A stretch of 64,000 bases of DNA from Chimonanthus salicifolius (taxonomy: Eukaryota > Streptophyta > Magnoliopsida > Laurales > Calycanthaceae), in assembly GCA_013350335.1 (NCBI GenBank), contig CM023535.1, positions 26,876,617 through 26,940,616 on the forward strand, written 5' to 3'. Under the pieces are notes generated by a model. The model was not told the DNA's origin. It saw only the letters and a program-made list of their open reading frames with translations, and searched no databases. The translations under genes and the position numbers were made by a program. Positions 14,532-64,000 of this stretch are shown piece after piece; the stretch's first letter is position 1; the number at the start of each line of letters is the position of its first letter.

Positions 14532-15253
14532 GGCGCCCCATTCAGACACCTGGAAAATCTGTCTGTAGACACCCAATTTCAAATTTTCGGGTGAAGTTAC
14601 CATTTTGCCCTCCCGCATTTTATCATTCGAATGATTCTTCAGTTCATTTTTCAGATCATTCGAATGATTCAGTCGTCCAAAGGAACACATCAGTGGAAAA
14701 TGGGTTCCTTCGACGATCGCTTCCTGCGCAGTCGAATCGTTCGAAGGATCACTTAGGATACTTCGAATGATTCTACTTACAGCACGACTGTATTTTAATA
14801 TTCCTCTCAGTTAAAATCGTTCGAAGGATCCAATGTGATCCTTCAAATGATTCGAGTGTGCAGTCGAATCATTTGAAGGAACACATCAGTGAAAAATTAG
14901 ATCCTTCGAACGATCGATCCCTACACAGTCGAATATTCGAAGGATCACATTGGATCCTTCGAACGATTTTAACTGAGGGAAATCTTAAAATACAGTCGTG
15001 CTGTGAGTTAGAATCATTCGAAGGATCCTAAGTGATCCTTCGAACGATTCGACTGTGTATGAAGAGATCGTCCGAAGGAACCCATTTTCCACTGACGTGT
15101 TCCTTCGGACGACTGAATCATTCGAATGATCTGAAAAATAAACTGAAGAATCATTCGAATGATAAAATGCGGGAGGGCAAAATGGTAACTTCACCCGAAA
15201 ATTTGAAATCGGGTGTCTACAGACAGATTTTCCAGGTGTCTGAATGGGGCGCC
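14532..15253. mobile_element. Foldback MULE (non-autonomous) with 9-bp TSD
   Basis: The 722-bp element is almost entirely two inverted arms of roughly 340 bp. The ends begin GGCGCCCCATTCAGACACC on both strands. A perfect 9-bp direct repeat TTTTTCTTA flanks it (14523-14531 and 15254-15262), the hallmark TSD length of Mutator-like elements. The subterminal block (TTTCGGGTGAAG, TACCATTTTGCCCTCC) matches the ends of the large MULE at 56752. Inside are many TTCGAA-cored palindromes such as ATCATTCGAATGAT. There is no coding capacity; open frames here are chance readings of the arms. It interrupts the RNase H region of the host copia element. Confidence 0.92.
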
Positions 15254-20072: not shown

Positions 20073-20671
20073 AAAACTACTTTGTTTGGCAAAGCCCCTT
20101 TCATTAAGAATCCTACTTCTCTTCAAAGAAAACACAAACATACTGGTGCATATCAGCATGCATCATTTTCCTTTATTTAACACTGAAATGTTGGAAAATA
20201 AGCATTCTCCACGTCCTCACATATTTTCCATTGAATTCATTTATTAAGGGCAGGAGATTTGAGTGCAGAAGAATAGGAAAATTGTGGAAAATTCCAAATC
20301 TTCCTGTCGGAGACACGGTCACTTACATTTTTTTACTGAAAACAGAGAGATGCTAATCCAAGGATTACAGAGGAAAAATCTGCCGATTCCATATGCAGAC
20401 GCTTTTGGGAATTTAAAAGCTCGTTTTTGTTCTATTTTGTACTTTTAAAAAAAAAATTGTAGCGAAAAATAGCAAACACATTAAGCAAGCACATGAAATC
20501 CTGACCAACGCAAACATAAAAATAATTATGTGACAAAATTCAAAGAAAACCAATAAATCAAAACTAAATTGGAAAAAAACACATATATTCCAAATCCAAC
20601 AAAAGCACAAAACCCATGGGAGTTCAAATCAAATTCAACGACAAGATTAACATCCTAACACCAAAGCATAC

Positions 20672-21139
20672 CTCATCGAAGCATTTCCGAGCAGAGAATG
20701 CAAGATGCAAGCCCCTAGCAAGATCTCTATCATACATCGCCCGCCTCCGCGGATCCGACAACGTTTCATACGCCTCCTGAACCTCGACAAACCTCTTAGT
20801 ATTCTCTTCCATCCGATCGGGTGGCGACACGTCCGGATGGTACTTAAGCGCCATCTGCTTATATGCCTGCTTGATTTCTGAGAAGCTCCCGCTCTCTGGA
20901 ATCCCCAACAATTCGTAGAAATTCGCCTTTGGTGAAACAAAGATGGACCGAACTCGGAAAACCGAACTATTTCTTCTTGTTCTTGTGTTCTTCTCGAGAA
21001 AGAACAAGCTAGTAGAAGCGTTTGGTTTGGTTTTGAGCAGATGGGTATTGAAGAACAGAGAAGGGGGAAGATTTGTATTTGGCTGTGTGGAAGAAAGATG
21101 AGGTTTTATGCAGAGATTTGGGTTAATGCAGCTGCTCAT
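20672..21139 (-). CDS. J20: DnaJ20-type chloroplast J-protein, exon 1
   Basis: Exon 1 encodes 156 residues. The first ~70, rich in Ser, Thr, Asn and basic residues with few acidic ones, look like a plastid transit peptide. Residues about 73-140 form a J-domain: NFYELLGIPESGSFSEIKQA, the HPD tripeptide at 101-103 that stimulates Hsp70 ATPase, and EAYETLSDPRRRAMYDRDL. The exon ends at ...RKCFDE with donor GAG|GTATGC and joins exon 2 (12433-12287) in phase 0, giving 204 residues. Family knowledge: Arabidopsis J20 works in the chloroplast stroma, delivering damaged deoxyxylulose 5-phosphate synthase to Hsp70 for repair or Clp degradation. The ATG at 21139 gives the full transit peptide. Without splicing the frame runs into the intron and stops at 20624. 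Confidence 0.92.
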
Positions 21140-24900: not shown

Positions 24901-25830
24901 GGCCAGCCATATAGACCCCTGGGTTTTCTTTCTAGAGACACTCCAATTCCAAATTTTAGATGAAATTACCATTTTGCCCTTCCACTTAAAACTACCGCAT
25001 CGACCAAATGAAACCTTTGATTTTCCCGTTCGGAGGATGTGGGCTACCGCATCTACCGAACGGCTTGCAGAGAGGGGGGAAAATCAGTCAAAGGCCCCAC
25101 CGTTGACCGAAACCCAAAGTCTTCCTTAAGCGTAGAGAGGTGGGTCAGGGGTGACCATATTGATGTCAATCTTAGGTGCAGAAGTGCATGATCCACTTAA
25201 ATCTAAGAAGAAAACCCACAAAACTGGATTTCTGTTGTCCCAAGCAGCAGCGGAAGAAATTGACCACAGGAGGGTCCCACGCGAGTCAGATCAGAAATTT
25301 GATAGTACAGATGGATACGCCGGCAGAAACTTTCCCGATCAACTGATCTAAGTCCAAGAAAATTTTCTGCCAGTGGGACCCCACCATACCCTTCCGTTTC
25401 TTGATGGTCTATCCATCTGTACTATCAGATCTTTGATCTGACTCACATGGGACCCTCTTCTCCCCAGTTTCTTCTGCTGCTACTTGGGACGATCAAAACT
25501 CAGTTTTGTGGGTTTTTTCTTAGATCCAAGTGGATCATGCACTTCTGCACCTAGGATCGACACCGCCATGGTCGCCCCTGGCCCACCTCTCTATGACTAA
25601 GGAAGACCTTGGGTTTCGGTCAACGATAAGGCCCCTTTGATTGGTTTTTTTCCGTTCCCTGCAATCCGTTCGGTCGATGTGGCAGCTCACATCCTCCGAA
25701 CGAAAAAAATCAAAGGTTTCATTCGATCGATATTGGCGGATTTAAGTGGAAGGGCAAAATGGTAATTTCACCTAAAATTTGGAAATCGGGTGTCTCCGGA
25801 AAGAAAACCCGGGTATCTATATGGCTGGCC
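24901..25830. mobile_element. Foldback MULE (non-autonomous) with 8-bp TSD
   Basis: The ends are GGCCAGCCATATAGA on both strands. The arms (24901 to about 25316, and about 25404 to 25830) are inverted copies of each other with scattered differences, around a short unpaired centre. TATATTTG flanks both sides (24893-24900, 25831-25838); the match could be read as 9 bp if the terminal C is shared. The subterminal block (GTGAAATTACCATTTTGCCC type) matches the foldback at 14532 and the MULE at 56752. No gene is inside. Confidence 0.88.
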
Positions 25831-30185: not shown

Positions 30186-33100
30186 ATCATGGTCACCAGT
30201 GCCAATGGAACCACCTCTCCCGTTCTGGGAGAAGGGTCCCTATCTTTTACATCATCATTTAGTCTATCTCATGTCTTGGTTGTCCCATCACTCGATTATG
30301 ACTTATTATCTGTTCCTCAAATTATTGATTCCCTTAATTGTACTGTGTGTTTTTGGCCCTTGTATTGTCTATTTCAGGACCTTCTCACCAGGGCCGTGAT
30401 TGGATGTGGTACTAGGAGGGGCAAGTTGTACTATCTGGACTTGACAGAAGACTGCAGTTAGAGATTGGGTCAAGCACATCATGTTCGAGGCGATGAGTCA
30501 GTCCGGATGAAAACAATTTGGTTGTAGCATAGACGATTAGGGCATGCTTCTTTTGGTTATCTAAAACTTTTATTTCCAGATTTGTTTTCCCATTTTACTG
30601 AATCAGACTTTCATTGTGAAACTTGTATTTTGGCAAAAAGTCATCGTATTTCTTATCCATTAAGATTGAATAAAAGTTCTATGCCTTTTATGCTTGTCCA
30701 TTCTGATGTTTGGGGACCGTCACGAGTTTCTACATTTAGTGGTTTGAAGTGGTTTGTGACATTTATAGATGATTGCACCAGGATGACATGGGTTTTCCCC
30801 ATAAAGCAGAAAAACGACGTCCCTGCGAAATTCATACAATTTCATCAATATGTTGCTACTCAGTTTGATAAGAAGATCATAACACTTCGGTCTGACAATG
30901 GTGGCGAGTTCGTCAACAATGACTTCCGTCATTTTTTGAGCCATCATGGTATTGTTCATCAAACCTCGTGTGCCTATACGCCACAACAGAATGGTGTAGC
31001 CGAACGTAAGAACCATCATATTCTTGAAGTTGTTCGTGCCTCTTTATTTGAGGCCCATATGCCCCATCATTTTTGGGGGGAGGCTCTTTGTTCGGCTGCT
31101 TATCTTATCAATAGAACACCATCCAGTACCCTTCAGTATCAGACTCTATTCCAGACATTGACCACTCTCCTCACCTTGCCGTCCACACCAAATCTCTAAC
31201 CACGTGTCTTTGGCTGCGTTGCTTATGTTCAGGTCTATCCGCACCAGCGTGGTAAACTTGATTCGTGTGCCCTAAGTTGTGTCTTTGTTGGGTATGCTGC
31301 CACTCAGAAGGGTTATAAGTGTTTTCATCCCCCTACTCAGACTTTGCACGTTACAGCAGATGTTATTTTTCACGAGAGTGAATTCTATTACTCAGGGGGA
31401 GATTCTGACCATCCCCTGTAGGGGGAGCGCTCTATATTTGCAGAAGGTACTCAGAATCAGATCTACCAAGTTTCACAGACTGTGTCAGACCAGCATCAGC
31501 CAACACCTGAGGATGTGGTGATGACTACTGACTAACCAACTACAGTGATGCAACAAGAGCAAGAGACTTAGTCGGATCATTTCCCTCTTACAGCTCATCC
31601 TACAGTACCACCACCTCCCATCCAATCAGGTCCTGAAGATCGCCCTGAAGATCCAACACAGGTACCTGAACACTCAAACTCAATCACTTTACCTGAGTCA
31701 AGTCATACAGGAAATGCAGGTTATCAGTTACCCCCTCGTACGACTAAAGGTATCCCTAGACAATAATATGACCCGACCCTAAAGCAAATGTTAAATACCC
31801 TATTGCTAATCATGTGTCTCTACATAGGTTGTCTCCGTCATGTGTATCATTTGTATGTCAATTATCCATTGTATCTATTCCAAGTAATGTGCAGGACGCT
31901 CTAACTCATCCTAGGTGGACTCAAGCAATGAATGAAGAAATGGAGGCCCTCTAGAAAAACTCCACCTGGGAGATGACTACCCTTCCTAAAGGGAAGAAAA
32001 CAGTAGGTTGCAGATGGATATATACAGTAAAATTCAAGGCAGATGGCACCATTGAACGATACAAAGCAAGACTAGTGGCGAAAGGCTACACTCAAACTTA
32101 TGGGATTGACTATGGGGAGACCTTTGCTCCTGTAGCCAAGATCAACACAATTCGAGTGCTCCTTTCTCTTGCAGCAAACCTTGACTGGCCATTACACCAG
32201 TTAGATGGAAAAAATGCATTCCTACATGGCGACCTAGAAGAAAAAGTTTATATGGATCCCCCTCTAGGATGTAAGATGGGGTTCAGTCAAAGTAACATGG
32301 TGTGCAAACTTAGAAAGTCTCTTTATGGATTGAAACAATCACCCAGAGCGTGGTTTGGACGGTTTAGCAAATCAATGAAGAATTTCGGCTACAAGCAAAG
32401 TAACTCAGATCATACTCTTTTCCTGAACATAAGAAAGGTAAGGTCACTGCCCTTATTGTATATGTTGATGACATGGTAGTTACAGGGAATGACCCAGAGG
32501 AAAAGGCAGCATTACAGCGCCATTTGGAAAGTGAGTTTGAAATGAAAAATCTTGGTGCTCTGAAGTATTTCTTAGGCATTGAAGTGGCTCGCTCAGAACA
32601 AGGAATATTTCTATCACAACGGAAATACATTCTTGACATCTTGACTGAAACTGGAATGTTAGCCAGCAAGCCAGCAGATACTCCAATGGAGTTGAATCAT
32701 CAGCTTGGTGAATATCCTGATCAGGTACCCACCAACAAAGAAAGATATCAACGCTTTGTGGGTAAGTTAATCTACCCAGCTCACACCAGACCTGACATAG
32801 CATATGCAGTAAGTGTGGTGAGTCAGTTCATGCATGCACTAAATGAAGCCCCCATGGGGGCTGTAACCCGAATTCTGAGATACTTGAAGTCAGCTCCTGG
32901 AAAAGGTTTGATGTTCTCACGACATGGTCACTTACATGTTGAGGGTTACACTGATGCAGACTGGGCTGGTTCTGTTATTGATAGGCGATCTACTTCTGGA
33001 TACTTTACCTTTGTGGGAGGCAATCTGGTCTCTTGGCGAAATAAGAAGCAGAAAGTGGTCTCAAGATCAACTGCTGAAGCAAAATATAGGGGTATGGCGC

Positions 33101-33417
33101 ATGGAGTAGGTGAGCTACTCTGGATAAAGGAGTTGTTGGGTGAATTGGGATTCAAATCCCAACGTGCCATGCAACTGCATTGTGATAACAAGGTCGCAAT
33201 AGACATTGCACATAATCCAGTGCAACATGATAGAACCAAGCATGTTGAAATTGACAAACATTTCATCAAGGAGAAACTCGAGGAGAAGATCATTGATGTA
33301 CCATTCGTTAAATCCGAAGATCAACTTGCAAATGTTCTCACCAAAGCAGTTACAGGAAGAGTTTTTCACAGCTCACTTAGCAAGTTGGGCATAGACGACA
33401 TATATGCTCCAACTTGA
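30186..33417 (+). pseudogene. Copia pol (integrase, RT, RNase H), frameshifted
   Basis: Pre-integrase and integrase lie at 30582-31199: HCETCILAKSHRISYPLRL, the core TFIDDCTRMTWVFPIKQK, and RSDNGGEFVNNDFRHF up to PQQNGVAERKNH. Reverse transcriptase starts at 31973 ([40 protein letters not shown]). A single-base loss near 32428 moves the frame. The next frame (32473-33417, 314 residues without a stop) holds the rest of RT (GALKYFLGIEVARSEQGIFL) and a complete RNase H (GYTDADWAGSVIDRRSTSGY to LANVLTKAV). The YVDD active site spans the frameshifted junction and is readable in the downstream frame. Further stops lie at 31197-31970. The 3' part is well preserved, so decay is moderate. Confidence 0.88.

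Positions 33418-48242: not shown

Positions 48243-48286
<44 letters not shown>

Positions 48287-55805: not shown

Positions 55806-55889
<84 letters not shown>
55806..55889. repeat. (AT)n microsatellite, about 84 bp
   Basis: A perfect dinucleotide run directly next to the 5' end of a partial minus-strand SINE. Confidence 0.95.
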
Positions 55890-56030: not shown

Positions 56031-56751
56031 AATTTTTTATTAAAATCAGAAAAATAAAATAAGTGAAAATTAGGATCCAAAATTTACATATATTAGATAA
56101 TTTTATATTTAAATATAGTGCTAATAAAAAGAACACCTTAATTGAATTAATAGAATTATGTTTTTAAGCTCTAAAAAATTGATAGCTATAAATTTTTAAT
56201 AATTCTTTAACTTTTCAATTCAACGTACGCTCCACTTTGCTTCCATCTCAAGAGCTCATTTTATTTTTTGACCAAGAGAAAATTTCTTGTTATTTTTGAA
56301 AAATTCAGCCAAAATTTATTAATTATACATATTTGAATTGATATTCTGACTAAAAAGCTCGGTTGAAATTCATAACTGAAGTAATGGGTTTACTAGTAAG
56401 ATCTATGTATGAAAATAGATATTTTTAAATGCTATAAATTGTAATAATTTTTAATTATTATTTTAATTTTAATATTTTAACTTACATTAATTTAATAAAT
56501 CACCTTAGTAAAAAGTTCCAAGTGTATCTTAATTGAATAAATCAGGCTTTCTTTGTTGAATTTTCAAATCTTATAGACTATATTTATCAAAATCTAAAAG
56601 TTCAAATTACAAGTTTAAAATAATAATAAAAATTAAAAATTCATTCACACTTTATCTATATTTCCCCCACATACCTATCAGATCCAATATTAAACAGTGT
56701 TAATCATACATTTTAATATACTAATATTAACTCCTCATACTAATTTTTTTA
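56031..56751. other. AT-rich spacer, no gene seen
   Basis: AT-rich with no recognisable element. It abuts the MULE end at 56752. Confidence 0.6.
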
Positions 56752-58085
56752 GGGAGCACTTACACACACCCGGTTTTTCTGCCTCTACACACCCGAATTC
56801 GGAAATTCGGGTGAAATTACGATTCTGCCCCCGCGTTTCCATTCATTCGAATGAATTCCCAGTTCATTTTGTCATTCATTCGAATGAATGGATTCATTCG
56901 AATGAATCACCAGTTCATTTTCGATTCATTCGAATGAATCACCGGTTCATTTTGGATTCATTCGAATGAATGGGCTGAACAGTAACACGGAGTACTGTTC
57001 AGCCCGATCATTCGAATGCCCAGTCGTTCGAATCCGCCGAATGGATTCATTCGAATGAATGACCAGTTCATCTTGGCATTCATTCGAATGAATCAATTCA
57101 TTCGAATGACTGGACATTCATTCGAATGATCGGGCTGAACAGTACTCCGTGTTACTGTTCAACCCGATCATTCGAATCATTCGCACACGATTCCGCTGAA
57201 TACATTCATTCGAATGAATGACCAGTCATTCGAATACACGATTCCGCTGAATACATTCATTCGAATGAATGACCAGTCATTCGAATGAATGGGCTGAACA
57301 GTAACACGGAGTACTGTTCAGCCCGATCATTCGATTCATTCGCATACACAGCATTCATTCGAATGAATCAACTGATTCATTCGAATGAATGCCTTCAAAC
57401 GTGCATTCATTCGAATGAATCAGATGATTCATTCGAATGAATGTATCAGAGGCTGCCACGGAATGACAGTCCCTCTGGTTCAGCTGATTCATTCGAATGA
57501 ATCAGCCCATTCATTCGAATGAATCCTCTGTTATCGGGCATTCATTCGAATGAATGGGATGATTCATTCGAATGAATGCATCAGAGGCTGTCTGGGAATG
57601 ACAGTCCAGGCATTCATTCGAATGAATCAGCCCATTCATTCGAATGAATGCCTGAAAATGTGCATTCATTCGAATGAATGGGCTGATTCATTCGAATGAA
57701 TGCCCTGGACTGCCATTCTCAGGCAGCCTCTGATGCATTCATTCGAATGAATCAGCCCATTCATTCGAATGAATGCCTGAAAATGTGCATTCATTCGAAT
57801 GAATGACATGATTCATTCGAATGAATGCCCTGGACTGCCACTCTCAGGCAGCCTCTGATGCATTCATTCGAATGAATCAGCCCATTCATTCGAATGAATA
57901 CCTGAAAATGTGCATTCATTCGAATGAATGGGCTGATTCATTCGAATGAATTCCTGGACTGCCATTCTCAGGCAGTCTCTGATGCATTCATTCGAATGAA
58001 TCAGACCATTCATTCGAATGAATGCACGTTTTCAAGGCATTCATTCGAATGAATGGGCTGATTCATTCGAATGAATGAAACTTAT
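56752..58085. repeat. Left TIR, 33 copies of the palindrome ATTCATTCGAATGAAT
   Basis: The 16-bp unit is its own reverse complement. I count about 33 exact copies from 56840 to 58080 plus several partial ones. The inner part (about 57440-58080) is a higher-order repeat of roughly 125 bp that carries the spacer CTGCC.TTCTCAGGCAGCCTC or its inverse. The outer part has three copies of a hairpin-like GGGCTGAACAGTA...TACTGTTCAGCCC (about 56970, 57130, 57292). The array ends just before the TATA box at 58083. Confidence 0.92.
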
Positions 58086-58594
58086 ATATAAATCGATCCA
58101 CGAAATTTCACTCGTCTCATTCCATTCAAAACCCTAAACCCTCGTTTCCCTCTCCCTCTCCCTTCTCCCTTGAACCCCTTTCTCAATCCCTTCTCCCTTA
58201 AAACTTAAACCCCATTTTCAACACCCACTTTTCACCCTTAAACCCCTTTTGCAAACATTTCTCCCTACAACCTCATTTTCAACCCCCTTTTCAACTCTCT
58301 TTTCAATCCCAAACCCTTGAACCCCATTTCAATCCCAAACCCTTATACTCCATTTTGAACCACGTTTTTCAAATAATTAACCCTAAAACCTCATTTTCAA
58401 CCCCCCTTTTTAATCCCAAAACAATGAACCCCTTTTAAATCCCAAACCCTTAAAAAAAAATCATTCCCATTTTCAACACACTCACTCTCTCAATCTGTTA
58501 CCTCGGGTCGAAGTTATCTCTCTCAAGCTAATGTCTGGATCTCGTATCTCGAATCGAAGGTAAGTCCTATCTCAGTTTTTTTCTAGAAATCATT
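58083..58594 (+). promoter_or_regulatory. TATA box and pyrimidine-rich leader of the MULE transposase gene
   Basis: TATATATAA (58083-58091) follows the last palindrome. The next 500 bp are C/T-rich with repeated ACCCTTAAACCCC-like runs and no ATG-led frame of note, up to the ATG at 58595. Confidence 0.6.
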
Positions 58595-60782
58595 ATGGAG
58601 TTTGTTGAAGGATGTTTTGAAAGTCGTGAAGACCTTATAAATTATGTTAAGAATATAGCTCTTAAACAAGGATTTGTATGTACGATAAAGAGGTCATGTA
58701 AAAAGGAAAATAAATTAGTCCTTGGCTGCGATAGAGGAGGTAAATACCGCAGCACGGTTAGCTTGGATGACGATGACAGAAAGAGGAAAGCATACTCTCG
58801 CCAATGTAATTGTCCTTTTGAAGTTAAAGGAAAACAGATTGTTGATGGGTCATGGAAGTTGACCATAAAGAGTTTGGAGCACAATCATGATATATCGGAT
58901 GTATTATTAGGTCATCCAAGTACAAGATGTTTTTCAGATTCTGAGAAAAGAATGATCATTGAAATGAGGAGTAGCAATATACCACCACGGCAAATTTTGA
59001 CGACCCTTAGAAATCAAAATCCAGATATTGGAATATCAGCGGCTGATTTGTACAACTTTTGTTCTGCGCTTCGAAAAGAGCAACTAAGGGGTCGAACTAC
59101 AATTGAAGCTTTGATAGAAGATCTTCAACAAGGTGGTTATCAATACTTTCTTGACTATGACAGTGATGGTCATCTATCCCATCTCTTTTTCGCACATCCG
59201 AAGTCAATTTTTCTTACCGACAGATATCATAATGTGTTTTTGATGGATTGCACGTACAAAACCAACAGATATCATATGCCATTGCTTCATGTCGTTGGTG
59301 TGACAAGTTTCAATAAGAATTTCTGCTCATGCTTTGCATTTCTAAGAAATGAGAAATTTGAAGATTATGTATGGGCATTACAGATGTTTAAAAAGGTCTT
59401 CGGAGTGCACCATGATCGACAAGTTCTTTTGACTGATAGGGAATTGGCGTTAAAGAATGCCATTGATTTAGAGTTCCCTAATGCTGTACATATTTTGTGT
59501 TCCTGGCATATCAACAAGAATATTGTCGCTCGTTGTAAACCTTTGTTTAAGAGAATGGAAGACTGGAATGCATTTTTTACCGAATGGAATGGCCTGATTG
59601 AGTCCCCAACCGAAGAAGCATTCAATACAGCGTTTGAGGCATTCAAACAAAATTTTAGAGCTGATTCGCAGGCAGTGAATTACTTAACAAGGACATGGAT
59701 CCCACTTAGAAAACAATTCGTCAAGACATGGATCGGATGGAGTTTACATTTTAAAAATCGAGCTACTTCAAGAGTTGAGGGTGCACATGCTATTCTGAAA
59801 AGTTATATATCTACATCTACAGGTGATCTAGATGTTGTCAGAAGAAAGATAGCCCATGTCATTGAAAATCAATTTGAAGAGTTCAAGATTCAACTTGAGG
59901 ATGAGAAGATTCGGTTTGCATGTGATGTGTCTATTCTTTTCTTTGATGAATTGAAGGGCAAAGTTTCTCATTTCGCAATGAATGAGGTTTACAACCAATA
60001 TGATATGCTTATGAACCGATCATTGAAACCCATTTGTACGGAAGAGTTTACAGCTTCAATGGGCCTACCGTGTGCGCACAAAATGCAATGGATGGACAAA
60101 TTACATTTGGATGACATACACCCACAATGGAGAATAGACTTAATCTCATTGGCTGACTTGAGGATTGAAAGGAGGAGCCCTGGAGATGTATTAGATGTAC
60201 ACTTTGAAGGTATTAAGAACAAATATGGACATTTGTCTTCGTATGATCAAGAGATGCTCCTAAATCATCTTCAAAATCTTGCCATCCATGATAAGCCAGT
60301 CAGTCACCCTATTATGCAATATTCTAGAGGACGTCATCCAGGTTCAAGGAATTCATCACAGGGCCAAACATCTACACGTCTAGATCCTTCTGCATTTGAG
60401 ATTGTAGAGAATCAACTAAATGGAAGGAGATGTGGGTTATGCAAAAATACTGGTCATACGAGGAGAACTTGTCCGAATAGGCCACCTTCTTCACAGGCAT
60501 CTACGAGTGTAGATTTAAATGCTGATTATAATGTAGGTGATTTCATTGAATCAGAAACAACGAGTTTTCCACATGATAGTGGATCTTACAACTTTGGTGA
60601 CGATTCAACATATAACTCTACAGAAATGACCGAAGTAAGTTCATTCCTTAAAGAGTTTATATGTATTTACCAATCGACATATAACTTTTCCATATGTTCT
60701 AATGTCATTTTTTTAAAATGTTATGCAGTGGTCTGGTGATCTTAGAGATAATGACGATTTCTTGCAATGGTGGAATCAATGA
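58595..60782 (+). CDS. MURA-type MULE transposase (two coding exons)
   Basis: The product cuts and joins the element's ends in the nucleus. Exon 1 is 58595-60634 (680 codons); a 94-bp intron (GTAAGT at 60635, TTATGCAG at 60728) joins in phase 0 to exon 2, 60729-60782 (WSGDLRDNDDFLQWWNQ), giving 697 residues. Read without splicing, it would end at 60739 with unrelated residues. Residues about 8-100 form a FAR1-like zinc-binding DNA-binding region (C45, C71, C73, H96, H98). The MULE DDE core follows: FLMDCTYKTN (D218), LLTDREL (D281), CSWH (302-305) and SRVEGAH (E395). A SWIM-like GLPCAHK is partly degenerate, with one of its Cys missing. A C-terminal zinc knuckle CGLCKNTGHTRRTC (C-x2-C-x4-H-x4-C) is present. 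The gene is driven from the left TIR. Confidence 0.9.
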
Positions 60783-61022
60783 AGTGGAGATAGGATTGTC
60801 AATAGCTTAATTTTAAGTTAGGAATGCTGTTGAATGTACTTGTCAGCTTGAATGTATTCATTTTATGTGGAATATTTAAATGCTAATTTAGTTCAAAATA
60901 ACATTTTTAAAGTAACGACCCAATTCACAATGAGCATGAGATAAATAATATAACATGTTCATTCAAAATATGAATTTTACATCTGTTTTACATGTCAATA
61001 ACAAAAAAAAAAAAAAAGTACA

Positions 61023-63098
61023 TCAAAGACAAATAATATCCGGATCAGAGGTAGAAGGTGAGGCAGGTGAAGCAGCAGGAGGTGCATTAGGAGGTGCATC
61101 AAGAGGTGCAATATGTGGTGTAGCAGGAGGTGCATCAGGTGCAGCAAGTGGTGCAGCAGGAGGTGCATCAGGGGGCGCATCAAGAGGTGCAGCAGGAGGT
61201 GCATCAGGAGGCGCATCAAGAGGTGCAGCAGGAGGTGCATCAGGTGGTGCAGCAGGAGGTGCAGCAGATGGTGCAGCAGGAGGTGCAGCAGGTCGGGCAG
61301 CAGCTGGTGCAGCAGGTGGGGCAGCAGGAGGTGCAGCAGGTGGTGTATGAACTGGAGGTGCAGCAGGTGGTGCAGGAGGTGGTGCAGCAGGAGGTGCACC
61401 AGCTGGTGCATGAACTGGAGGTACATATGGAATAAGTGCAGTATGACGAGAACGGGGGCGAGAAACTGCTGGTGCTCGACTATGAACAGAACGAGAGCCA
61501 GTAGCAGCTGCAACACCAGTCGGACCAATACGGGGGCCAGAAGCTGCTGCTAATCCAGTCGGACGAACAGAGTGGCCAAAAGCTACTAATCCAATCGGTC
61601 TGACCTGGGGGCCTGAAACTGCTCCAAATGGACGAGCAGGGGTGCTAGATCCTGCTGCTGCTGCTGAAGCTGAAGCACCTGCTCCAGATGTAGGAGCATG
61701 GGTGCCAGCACCTGCTCCAGATGTAGGAGTATGGGTGCCAGATCCTGCTCCTGAAGGTGGAGCAGATGATCGAGATGGCCGAGCAGGAATGTCAGATGCT
61801 GAAGCTGAAGCTGAAGCTGCTGATCGAAATGGTCGAGCAGGGCTGCCAGATGTTGCTCCTAAAGCTGAAGCTGCTGATCCAAATGGACGAATAGGGACAA
61901 AAGCTGCTCCTGCATATTCTTTAGATACCCTTGCTCGTAAACTCCCATCTGCTTCTGCTCCTAATGCTGCTGTTATCCCCCTCTCTTGTGCTATAAGCAC
62001 AGCCAATCTCAAAGTATCGATAATCTGATTCTGCATCACATCCAACCTTGCAGAAACCTGATCATATCTCTGATCCATCTTCTCCTCCAAAGAAGAAATG
62101 CTATCAAGAATCTGTTGTGTGTTGATTCCAGTTGATCCTTCTTGAGGAGGAGTCCCTGCCTCGCGTGCCTCACGCGCCTCAGATGCCTCAGATGGCTCAG
62201 GTGGTGGTGGTACCTGAAGTTGAAGTGCCTCGACAACTTTGGGTACCCATTTCTTACTCACTGTGTCGAGTTGGAATCCCATCTTCTTCAATGTTGAATC
62301 ATTGAAATAATCAAATCGGTCTAAAGAAACTTTATCATCGGGGAGAAGAGGGATTCCGCGTTCTTCAAAAAATGAACATAGAAATAGACCGTACGGAAGA
62401 CTGCATCTTCTGGTCTTCCGGCAGGCGCGCATGTTACTAATGATGATATGGGAGAGGGAGATTTTTTTCCCATTCATGATGCACCAAATCAAGAAGACAT
62501 CGAACCATGTCACAGTAGTATGCCCTTTTCTAGGGCACACACAGTTGACAACTATGTGGTGGATGATTCGTGCCTCTAATGTCAAATTCGTCAGAGGGGG
62601 GGTCTTCTTCTCAGTAATATCTGTCCTCCCACAGATTTCGTTAAGGGCTACCAAAACGTCAAAGCCCTCAACATCAGTGGGCCATGTACGACTGTCGTAC
62701 TTTCTAATCGCATCTTTGGGCAAATTGTATAGGAGGTCTAACCTATCCCGTGTAATGACAATTTCTTGCCCTCGGACAGATGTTTTAACCGACTCATCGT
62801 CAATTCTTTCCACATTGGCATAAAATTCTTTAACGACCGTCGGATACATATCACTTTTTAATGCCAAAAATGACCCCCAACCTATTTTTTCAAATAAATC
62901 TTCAACTTTAAAACCAAATTGTGTGAAATATGAGAGGTCCACGATTTTACCGAATATGAAGGACCGTGTGGAGAAATCCTCTCTGTACATGGTCGCCGCT
63001 TCCGAAGATACGAAATAGGTGGGGTCGAATGCGGTATCCTTCTTTTGTTTTTTCCCTCCCCTTGTTGAGGTCGCTTTCCTTTTCGAGGACGATGCCAT
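61023..63098 (-). CDS. MULE second gene: putative plant transposon protein domain with Ala/Pro tail
   Basis: An uninterrupted frame of 691 residues starts at the ATG at 63098. N-terminus MASSSKRKATSTRGGKKQKK looks like a nuclear localisation signal. Residues about 50-290 resemble the 'putative plant transposon protein' family (Transposase_32-like): FKVEDLFEKIGWGSFLALK, RLDLLYNLP, RIIHHIVVNCVCPRKG, FLIWCIMNGKKISLSHIII and FEERGIPLLPDD. Residues about 325-370 are a probable coiled coil (SLEEKMDQRYDQVSARLDVM). The remaining ~320 residues are low complexity, rich in Ala, Pro, Ser and Gly, ending SPSTSDPDIICL. It faces the transposase gene tail to tail, as mudrB faces mudrA in MuDR, but no mudrB similarity was noticed. 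Relatives, all broken, are at 6990-8408 and 46014-47635. No catalytic motif is evident; a DNA- or chromatin-directed helper role is inference. Confidence 0.8.
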   Translation of the reverse strand: MASSSKRKATSTRGGKKQKKDTAFDPTYFVSSEAATMYREDFSTRSFIFGKIVDLSYFTQFGFKVEDLFEKIGWGSFLALKSDMYPTVVKEFYANVERIDDESVKTSVRGQEIVITRDRLDLLYNLPKDAIRKYDSRTWPTDVEGFDVLVALNEICGRTDITEKKTPPLTNLTLEARIIHHIVVNCVCPRKGHTTVTWFDVFLIWCIMNGKKISLSHIIISNMRACRKTRRCSLPYGLFLCSFFEERGIPLLPDDKVSLDRFDYFNDSTLKKMGFQLDTVSKKWVPKVVEALQLQVPPPPEPSEASEAREAREAGTPPQEGSTGINTQQILDSISSLEEKMDQRYDQVSARLDVMQNQIIDTLRLAVLIAQERGITAALGAEADGSLRARVSKEYAGAAFVPIRPFGSAASALGATSGSPARPFRSAASASASASDIPARPSRSSAPPSGAGSGTHTPTSGAGAGTHAPTSGAGASASAAAAGSSTPARPFGAVSGPQVRPIGLVAFGHSVRPTGLAAASGPRIGPTGVAAATGSRSVHSRAPAVSRPRSRHTALIPYVPPVHAPAGAPPAAPPPAPPAAPPVHTPPAAPPAAPPAAPAAARPAAPPAAPSAAPPAAPPDAPPAAPLDAPPDAPPAAPLDAPPDAPPAAPLAAPDAPPATPHIAPLDAPPNAPPAASPASPSTSDPDIICL
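61060..61420. repeat. GCAGGAGGTGCA-type minisatellite encoding the Ala/Pro tail
   Basis: Short GGTGCA/GGAGGT units (multiples of 3 bp) repeat across about 360 bp. On the minus strand they give APPAAP and APPDAP units. The reading frame is kept throughout. Confidence 0.88.
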
Positions 63099-63169
63099 GG
63101 GTTAAAGGGTGGGTTTTTCAAAATAAAGGAAGAAGTAGGGAGAATAGGGTGGGGTTTGGGATTGAAATG

Positions 63170-63325
63170 GGGGTGATTTGAATGAAAGGGGGGTGTGATT
63201 CGAATGAATGGGGTGTGATTCGAATGAATGGGGTGTGATTCGAATGAATGGGTGTGTGATTCGAATGAATGGGTGTGTGATTCGAATGAATGGGGGTGTG
63301 ATTCGAATGAATGAGGGAAGGGCTC
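63170..63325 (-). repeat. 20-21-bp minisatellite with the palindrome core in the second gene's leader
   Basis: About seven tandem units of GATTCGAATGAATGGGTGTG. Each holds the TTCGAATGAAT half of the TIR palindrome. It lies between the right-arm TATA region (about 63530) and the start codon at 63098. Open frames across it (SFESHTHSFESHTH type) are readings of the repeat. Confidence 0.85.
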
Positions 63326-63529
63326 GGGAAAGGGACTTCGGAATGAGGGAAGGCCGAGCTTAGATTGAGGAAAGGGAGAGCTAAGGATGAGAGAGACACG
63401 GCCGGAACCGGCGCCGGAGCAGGAGAGTGAAAGGGGGAGGGAGAGATTCGATCTAGGGTTTTGAAATGGACTCACGGCGAAGGAGGGAAGGGGTTAGGGT
63501 TCGGTGTCGATCGAATGAATCGACGGTTC

Positions 63530-64000
63530 TTATATATTAAGTTTGCATTCATTCGAATGAATCATGCCATTCATTCGAATGAATGCACATTTTCAGGCAT
63601 TCATTCGAATGAATGGGCTGATTCATTCGAATGAATGCATCAGAGGCTGCCTGAGAATGGCAGTCCAGGGCATTCATTCGAATGAATCAGCCCATTCATT
63701 CGAATGAATGCACATTTTCAGGCATTCATTCGAATGAATGGGCTGATTCATTCGAATGAATGCCTGGACTGTCATTCCCAGACAGCCACTGATGCATTCA
63801 TTCGAATGAATCATCCCATTCATTCGAATGAATGCCCGATAACAGAGGATTCATTCGAATGAATGGGCTGATTCATTCGAATGAATCAGCTGAACCAGAG
63901 GGACTGTCATTCCGTGGCAGCCTCTGATACATTCATTCGAATGAATCATCTGATTCATTCGAATGAATGCACGTTTGAAGGCATTCATTCGAATGAATCA
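63530..64000. repeat. Right TIR (inner 470 bp), cut by the window end
   Basis: Contains about 15 exact copies of ATTCATTCGAATGAAT. Its reverse complement reproduces 57373-58080, including the CTCTGTTATCGGGCATTC and CTTCAAACGTGCATTC spacers. The minus strand reads TTAATATATAAG (63540-63529) right after the array, the presumed TATA region of the second gene. Confidence 0.9.

What the first reader, a model, noticed from the sequence alone, without database searches (positions are those of the whole stretch)
56752..64000. MuDR-like two-gene MULE in which the second gene is not mudrB
The transposase gene and a second gene run tail to tail from two long inverted repeats, the plan known from maize MuDR. 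The second gene belongs instead to the poorly understood 'putative plant transposon protein' family, with a nuclear-localisation-like start, a coiled coil and an Ala/Pro tail. Both frames are intact. This looks like an independently assembled two-component transposon, and to my knowledge the combination is not widely described.
Basis: partly seen in the sequence, partly recalled or inferred. Interest (0 to 1): 0.9.

Follow-up and report, generated by a model that had tools for sequence, protein, structure and literature searches.

The report
Two-gene plant transposon, palindrome-packed ends
A transposon, apparently from a plant and likely a recent insertion, carries a predicted transposase gene and a second gene of a barely studied family, both reading inward from ends packed with 48 visible copies of one 16-letter palindrome, which the second protein would bind, likely to keep the element from being silenced.

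Summary
The anatomy is real. A Mutator-like element starts at 56752. Its arms share 456 nt at 100% identity up to the window edge; the right end, unseen, is predicted near 64621. ORF1 (697 aa, one predicted 94-nt intron) keeps the DDE triad; its model matches transposase ISCth4 and, at the N-terminus, DNA-bound AFT2. ORF2 (691 aa) carries PF20167, E=9e-27. MURB was not available for a test.

A 722-bp relative with a perfect 9-bp TSD carries related TTCGAA arrays.

'MuDR-like' fits the layout, not the transposase, which has an AFT/FAR1-type N-terminus and plant FAR1/cheA-like relatives. Opposite-strand second genes unlike mudrB are published (Abermu, antisense PMD), and PF20167 is known from Athila; ten literature searches did not show this combination.

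Best model (inferred): the transposase acts on CACCC motifs at the tips, and ORF2 binds the arrays as a VANC-like anti-silencing activator.

The parts
56743..56751 (.). candidate left target-site duplication, ATTTTTTTA
   Evidence: sequence next to the left end; its partner lies beyond the window, so unverified
56752..56836 (+). outer terminal domain, shared with four other element ends; CACCC at positions 16 and 39, GGGTG at 58
   Evidence: 22-bp core pattern 5 hits in the window, 0 in 100 shuffles
56841..58077 (+). left palindrome array: 33 exact ATTCATTCGAATGAAT, 39 ATTCGAAT cores; 125-bp higher-order unit in the inner part
58083..58090 (+). TATA box of ORF1, beside the inner edge of the array
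   Evidence: core-promoter role inferred
58595..60782 (+). ORF1, predicted transposase, 697 aa spliced: AFT/FAR1-type N-terminus, DDE (D218, D281, E395), zinc-knuckle-like C-terminus
60635..60728 (+). 94-nt predicted intron, GT..AG
   Evidence: no RNA evidence
61023..63098 (-). ORF2, 691 aa: basic N-terminus, PF20167 Transposase_32 (residues 71-250), possible coiled coil (about 326-375), Ala/Pro repeat tail
63099..63544 (-). ORF2 leader; no ATG; 9 CACCC (6 CACACCC); shares a 21-mer with the ORF1 leader
63188..63312 (-). six tandem 20-21 bp composite repeats joining ATTCATTCGAAT to a CACCC-containing stretch
63530..63536 (-). TATA box of ORF2, beside the inner edge of the right array
   Evidence: core-promoter role inferred
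63545..64000 (-). visible part of the right arm: 15 exact palindromes; 100% complementary to 57373-57828
   Evidence: true end predicted at 64621
14532..15253 (.). related non-autonomous fold-back element, 722 bp, 12 TTCGAA cores, flanked by the 9-bp TSD TTTTTCTTA on both sides
24901..25830 (.). second related fold-back element, 930 bp, flanked by TATATTTG on both sides, no TTCGAA

Best explanation
This is a two-gene Mutator-like element whose predicted transposase likely acts on the CACCC-bearing outer 62 bp or so of its ends, while the second protein would bind the palindrome arrays, likely to keep both promoters active against silencing. Shown here: two inward-facing genes, one per arm; arms made of a CG-centred 16-bp palindrome; a TATA-like box at the inner edge of each array; the DDE triad; an N-terminus whose predicted fold matches DNA-bound AFT2; a terminal domain with CACCC motifs, while the arrays contain none. 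Inferred: (1) the AFT-like domain reads CACCC at the tips and, by the same motif, the repeats in the ORF2 leader, so the transposase could also regulate ORF2; (2) the ORF2 protein, nuclear by its basic N-terminus and perhaps dimeric, recognises the two-fold symmetric palindrome, whose CpG centre is a possible methylation site; (3) many sites per arm give it specificity for its own family and let it exclude or reverse methylation at both promoters, as VANC proteins do with their motif arrays in VANDAL elements; (4) the arrays grow and change by tandem duplication, so related families drift to different motifs around a TTCGAA core.
Against: No binding, expression or methylation data. ORF2 shows no DUF1985, DUF287 or PMD match, and its fold could not be predicted (mean pLDDT 39), so it has no demonstrated DNA-binding domain. 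In the older fold-back relative 7 of 25 aligned CpG sites decayed to TG/CA between its arms: no sign of lasting protection from methylation. High CpG in the arrays may only reflect recent duplication of a CG-containing unit. The CACCC at position 16 is exact only in 1 of 5 ends, the one at 39 in 4 of 5, the inverted one in 3 of 5. At least six of the nine leader CACCC sites belong to one minisatellite and are not independent. The AFT2 row ranks 47th of 50 among rows of similar Z for another domain, and FAR1-type domains of host proteins are recalled to read a different motif. Helical phasing of the palindromes was not significant (p=0.11). Abermu without its opposite-strand ORF is still polymorphic in rice, so such second genes can be dispensable (PMC9168764, section 23).
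Confidence: 0.4

Rival explanations
1. The palindrome arrays are subterminal binding sites of the transposase itself, and the ORF2 protein is a MURB-like helper for integration.
For: Long Mutator arms are said to hold transposase sites and promoters (start of the abstract of PMC3310237), and 10 of 12 long-TIR mosquito MULE families have short subterminal tandem repeats (passage of PMC5225508). The 722-bp relative also has TTCGAA arrays and has a 9-bp TSD.
Against: The 930-bp relative shares the terminal domain and has 8-bp flanking repeats but no TTCGAA. The arrays hold no CACCC, the core expected for an AFT-like domain. Similarity to MURB was not tested.
Confidence: 0.25
2. ORF2 is a captured passenger from an Athila-type retrotransposon or a host gene and has no role in the element's life.
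For: PF20167 occurs in a sunflower Athila ORF (passage of PMC11728184); PMD genes were captured twice by MULEs (passage of PMC5418596); the Abermu authors suggest their opposite-strand ORF may be unimportant for transposition. The one other copy seen, P0121, has six substitutions in 168 residues and then leaves the frame.
Against: The frame is open for 691 codons with a complete domain and its own TATA box and leader tied to the right arm. The next relatives found are only 22-28% identical (limited to candidates of similar length), which does not look like a fresh capture.
Confidence: 0.22
3. The arrays serve no protein: as fold-back DNA they are mainly the source of hairpin RNA through which the host silences the family.
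For: Long MULE arms are reported as siRNA sources (passages of PMC10398659 and section 6 of PMC6446971); the region is full of inverted pairs (478 in 8 kb).
Against: Silencing should favour loss of such arrays (VANDALs mostly lack or have degenerate arms, section 7 of PMC6446971), yet here one exact 16-mer recurs 48 times while the sequence between copies varies, and TTCGAA arrays recur in an older relative.
Confidence: 0.1
4. ORF2 belongs to a separate element nested inside the MULE.
For: PF20167 is also a retrotransposon domain.
Against: No direct or inverted repeats bound ORF2 beyond its own coding repeats; TATA box and leader resemble the ORF1 side.
Confidence: 0.03

Closest known systems
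Maize MuDR (mudrA/mudrB)
   Same: two convergent genes, each starting at one long inverted repeat
   Different: second gene here is PF20167; transposase here has an AFT/FAR1-type N-terminus; arms here are palindrome arrays of about 1.3 kb on the left. No MURB sequence was compared
Abermu MULEs of monocots and dicots (PMC9168764, passages and sections 13, 16, 23)
   Same: transposase plus an opposite-strand ORF unlike MURB, 9-bp TSD, about 8 kb in barley
   Different: barley Abermu transposase is similar to MURA, its arms are 138-145 bp, and PF20167 is not mentioned in what was read
VANDAL elements with VANC (PMC5735166, PMC10398659, passages)
   Same: extra protein plus dense short-motif arrays in non-coding DNA, motif drift between families
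   Different: VANC has DUF1985 and DUF287; VANDAL arms are degenerate, short or absent; motifs are 8-9 bp (for VANC21 in one orientation), not palindromes
Hop clade, group 35 of PMC6446971, including Mutyl with MutB
   Same: FAR1 in half of the plant-containing subgroup, CCHC among its finger types, plants and fungi mixed; Mutyl has a second ORF
   Different: the plant-containing subgroup is listed with one ORF and arms of 30-220 bp; the paper gives MutB as antisense in Table 1 but as same-orientation in its introduction
Athila Ty3/gypsy aORF (PMC11728184, passages)
   Same: PF20167 domain and a nuclear-localisation signal
   Different: retrotransposon; different partner genes
Muta1 of Aedes aegypti (PMC5225508, passages)
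   Same: MULE with repeats filling the arms, 8-9 bp TSD
   Different: nine 12-bp direct repeats in 145-bp arms; only a transposase described in what was read

Membership tests
MULE (Mutator-like) superfamily | MULE-domain DDE transposase | tested here: met
MULE (Mutator-like) superfamily | 8-11 bp target-site duplication | tested here: inconclusive
   right end is outside the window; a related element with the same terminal domain has a perfect 9-bp TSD, another has 8-bp repeats
MULE (Mutator-like) superfamily | long terminal inverted repeats | tested here: met
   456 nt at 100% within the visible part
MuDR element proper | second gene of the mudrB family | not tested
   no MURB sequence or profile at hand; ORF2 passes only the PF20167 cut-off
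MuDR clade transposase | Mutator-type N-terminal DNA-binding domain (PF03108; accession and link to the clade recalled) | tested here: not met
   no match at E<=1; AFT (above cut-off) and FAR1 (just below cut-off) matched instead
VANDAL / VANC | VANC protein with DUF1985 and DUF287 | tested here: not met
   no match up to E=10 for residues 1-300 or up to E=1 for the whole protein
VANDAL / VANC | dense array of one short motif in non-coding DNA | tested here: met
   48 exact palindromes
VANDAL / VANC | second protein binds the motif and removes methylation | not testable with these tools
   needs binding and methylation experiments
PMD-carrying MULEs | plant mobile domain in the extra ORF | tested here: not met
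   no PMD match in Pfam
PF20167 Transposase_32 | profile match above curated cut-off | tested here: met
   94.5 bits against 45, profile positions 2-177 of 177
Hop clade (group 35) | phylogenetic position with Hop-group references | tested here: inconclusive
   in a midpoint-rooted tree of 38, ORF1 is sister to 16 sequences (14 from named plants), support 0.974, with the five named fungal sequences outside; no Hop or MURA reference was in the tree

The most novel reading that the evidence does not exclude
A second, independently evolved sequence-specific anti-silencing system of plant DNA transposons: a PF20167 protein, of a family shared with Athila retrotransposons, that recognises CG-centred palindrome arrays filling the ends of its own MULE and keeps them unmethylated, outside the VANDAL lineage and with a protein unrelated to VANC.
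Probability: 0.3. Interest if true: 0.85.

Novelty: new variant of a known kind. Interest (0 to 1): 0.56.

Why it matters
I know of no assigned function for PF20167, a plant-transposon protein family. Here it sits in an apparently intact, likely young element beside a conspicuous candidate target, a 16-bp palindrome seen 48 times. That makes the function directly testable: one protein, one probe. If it binds, VANC-type self-protection would not be a peculiarity of VANDALs but a strategy reached at least twice with unrelated proteins.

Tried and rejected
ORF2 protein search with residues 1-390 gave no hit at E<=0.001 among the 7997 candidates scored; with residues 1-300 and E<=10 it gave 7 of 838 candidates, one of them a near copy. 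The ORF2 model was too poor to use (mean pLDDT 39), so no fold search was made with it. PDB sequence searches gave nothing at E<=0.001. A scan of viral contigs and one of prokaryotic genome contigs for paired palindromes, and one of viral contigs for ORF2, found no relative; none of these collections is meant for plants. Helical phasing of palindrome spacings: not significant. CpG protection in the older relative: not seen. A nested-element origin of ORF2: no bounding repeats. A possible 5' exon of ORF1 from the ATG at 58531 was dropped because the gap between the donor-like and acceptor-like sites is about 27 nt, too short for a plant intron (sequence; own count; intron limit recalled). The host species was not identified.

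Literature: ten searches. 'PF20167' is in 1 paper of the library and 'putative plant transposon protein' in 2, seen as listings only; that phrase together with 'MULE' is in 0. One search (Transposase_32, MULE, transposon) listed 20 of 439 papers, none of the 20 holding Transposase_32, so it is not exhaustive. The library holds open-licence PMC papers only; absence from print is not shown. Eleven papers were opened; for all of them I saw passages, and for PMC6446971 (sections 6, 7) and PMC9168764 (sections 13, 16, 23) also whole sections.
Full report
Observation. The window holds the left end and most of a Mutator-like element. The left end, GGGAGCACTTACACACACCCGG at 56752, aligns without gaps with the ends of two smaller relatives in the same window. 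The arms 57373-57828 and 63545-64000 are 456 nt long and 100% complementary. With 0 differences in 456 sites the 95% upper bound on divergence is 0.65%, which points to a recent insertion or to conversion between the arms. By symmetry the right end would be at 64621, giving about 7.87 kb; this is a prediction. The arms also pair at shifts of 125 and 250 bp, and the left array is 250 bp or so longer before its TATA box, so the left side has about two more 125-bp units.

Arms. They are arrays of the perfect palindrome ATTCATTCGAATGAAT: 33 copies on the left, 15 in the visible right arm, none in the other 56.7 kb; a first-order Markov model expects 5e-5 in the element. The core ATTCGAAT occurs 60 times in the element (39 left arm, 6 ORF2 leader, 15 right arm) and 5 times elsewhere in the window. 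The palindromes cover 43% of the left array and 53% of the visible right array. Each array ends beside a TATA box, AAACTTATATATAA on the left and AAACTTAATATATAA on the right, so both genes start at the inner edge of an array. CpG observed/expected is 1.18 and 0.97 in the arms against 0.47 in 41.4 kb of surroundings; 57% and 75% of the CpGs in the arms are TTCGAA centres. Spacing showed no significant helical phasing (p=0.11).

Relatives in the window. At 14532-15253 lies a 722-bp fold-back element flanked by a perfect 9-bp duplication, TTTTTCTTA. It has 12 TTCGAA cores; 4 are in TCATTCGAATGA, the other 8 have changed flanks such as CCTTCGAACG. Only 8 TTCGAA lie outside both elements. Its arms agree at 329 of 357 aligned sites; of 25 aligned CpG sites 15 are conserved and 7 show TG/CA decay, so this older copy gives no sign of protection from methylation. 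At 24901-25830 a 930-bp fold-back (arms 79.5% alike) is flanked by TATATTTG on both sides and has no TTCGAA. The 22-bp terminal pattern, with up to 3 mismatches, finds 5 ends of these 3 elements and nothing else in the window; 0 in 100 shuffles. So the outer domain is the constant part and the array the variable part.

CACCC. The Aft consensus core is CACCC (passages). The outer 62 bp of the element hold CACCC at 16 and 39 and GGGTG at 58. Across the 5 ends the site at 39 is exact in 4, the inverted one in 3, and the one at 16 only in the large element. The arrays hold none in 1226 + 456 bp. The ORF2 leader holds 9 on its own strand (2.3 expected), at least six of them in a 20-21 bp minisatellite; the ORF1 leader holds 2 (1.6 expected). 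This suggests that the transposase reads the tips and may also act on the ORF2 leader. It is a hypothesis from motif and fold, not a binding result; host FAR1-type proteins are recalled to read another motif.

ORF2. 691 aa: basic N-terminus, PF20167 over profile positions 2-177 of 177, a stretch with weak heptad periodicity (p=0.064), then an Ala/Pro tail coded by a 12-bp minisatellite. No other Pfam family passes its cut-off. Relatives: P0121, 188 aa on a 1856-bp unnamed contig, 6 differences in the first 168 residues and then out of frame, evidently another copy; and six Stylosanthes PF20167 proteins at 22-28% identity with E-values of 1.2 or worse, so ORF2 is a divergent member, as far as searches limited to candidates of similar length show. 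The leaders of the two genes share an exact 21-mer, against at most 16 in 500 shuffles, and no repeats bound ORF2 beyond its own coding repeats; ORF2 looks like a built-in part of this copy.

Comparison, from passages and named sections. MuDR has mudrB, apparently needed for integration (PMC6446971). Table 1 of that paper lists PMD in antisense, in at least some members, for groups 42 and 47-50, and a plant-containing subgroup of group 35 with one ORF; it gives MutB of Mutyl as antisense, while its introduction says same orientation. Abermu has an opposite-strand ORF unlike MURB, fast evolving and perhaps dispensable (PMC9168764, sections 13, 16, 23). VANC has DUF1985 and DUF287 and is tied to 8-9 bp motifs in dense arrays; VANDAL arms are degenerate. 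PF20167 has been noted in a sunflower Athila ORF (PMC11728184). Ikeda et al. speculated that captured PMD proteins serve anti-silencing (PMC5418596). Muta1 and other mosquito MULEs fill their arms with short repeats (PMC5225508). Ten searches of an open-licence library did not show the combination seen here; several listings were capped.

Verdict. Anatomy confirmed; 'MuDR-like' fits the layout, while the transposase domains and relatives point to another branch; the second gene matches none of the accessory MULE families that could be tested (MURB could not). The most useful new point is the palindrome array beside a divergent PF20167 gene, which gives that family a concrete candidate target. 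Function remains inference.

Noticed in passing
14532-15253: 722-bp fold-back MULE relative with a perfect 9-bp TSD TTTTTCTTA and 12 TTCGAA cores in a drifted motif.
   Followed up: yes
24901-25830: 930-bp fold-back relative sharing the terminal domain, flanked by TATATTTG, without TTCGAA.
   Followed up: partly
30582-33417: Copia-type retrotransposon pieces (integrase core and reverse transcriptase in separate ORFs; Pfam rve and RVT_2).
   Followed up: partly
20624-21139: DnaJ-domain ORF on the minus strand (PF00226), a likely host gene.
   Followed up: no
48245-48285: Run of 41 G in AT-rich surroundings; may be an assembly feature.
   Followed up: no
55806-55889: (TA)42 microsatellite about 0.9 kb left of the element.
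   Followed up: no
58531-58594: Upstream ATG followed by a donor-like AAGGTAAGT in the ORF1 leader; no workable intron found.
   Followed up: partly
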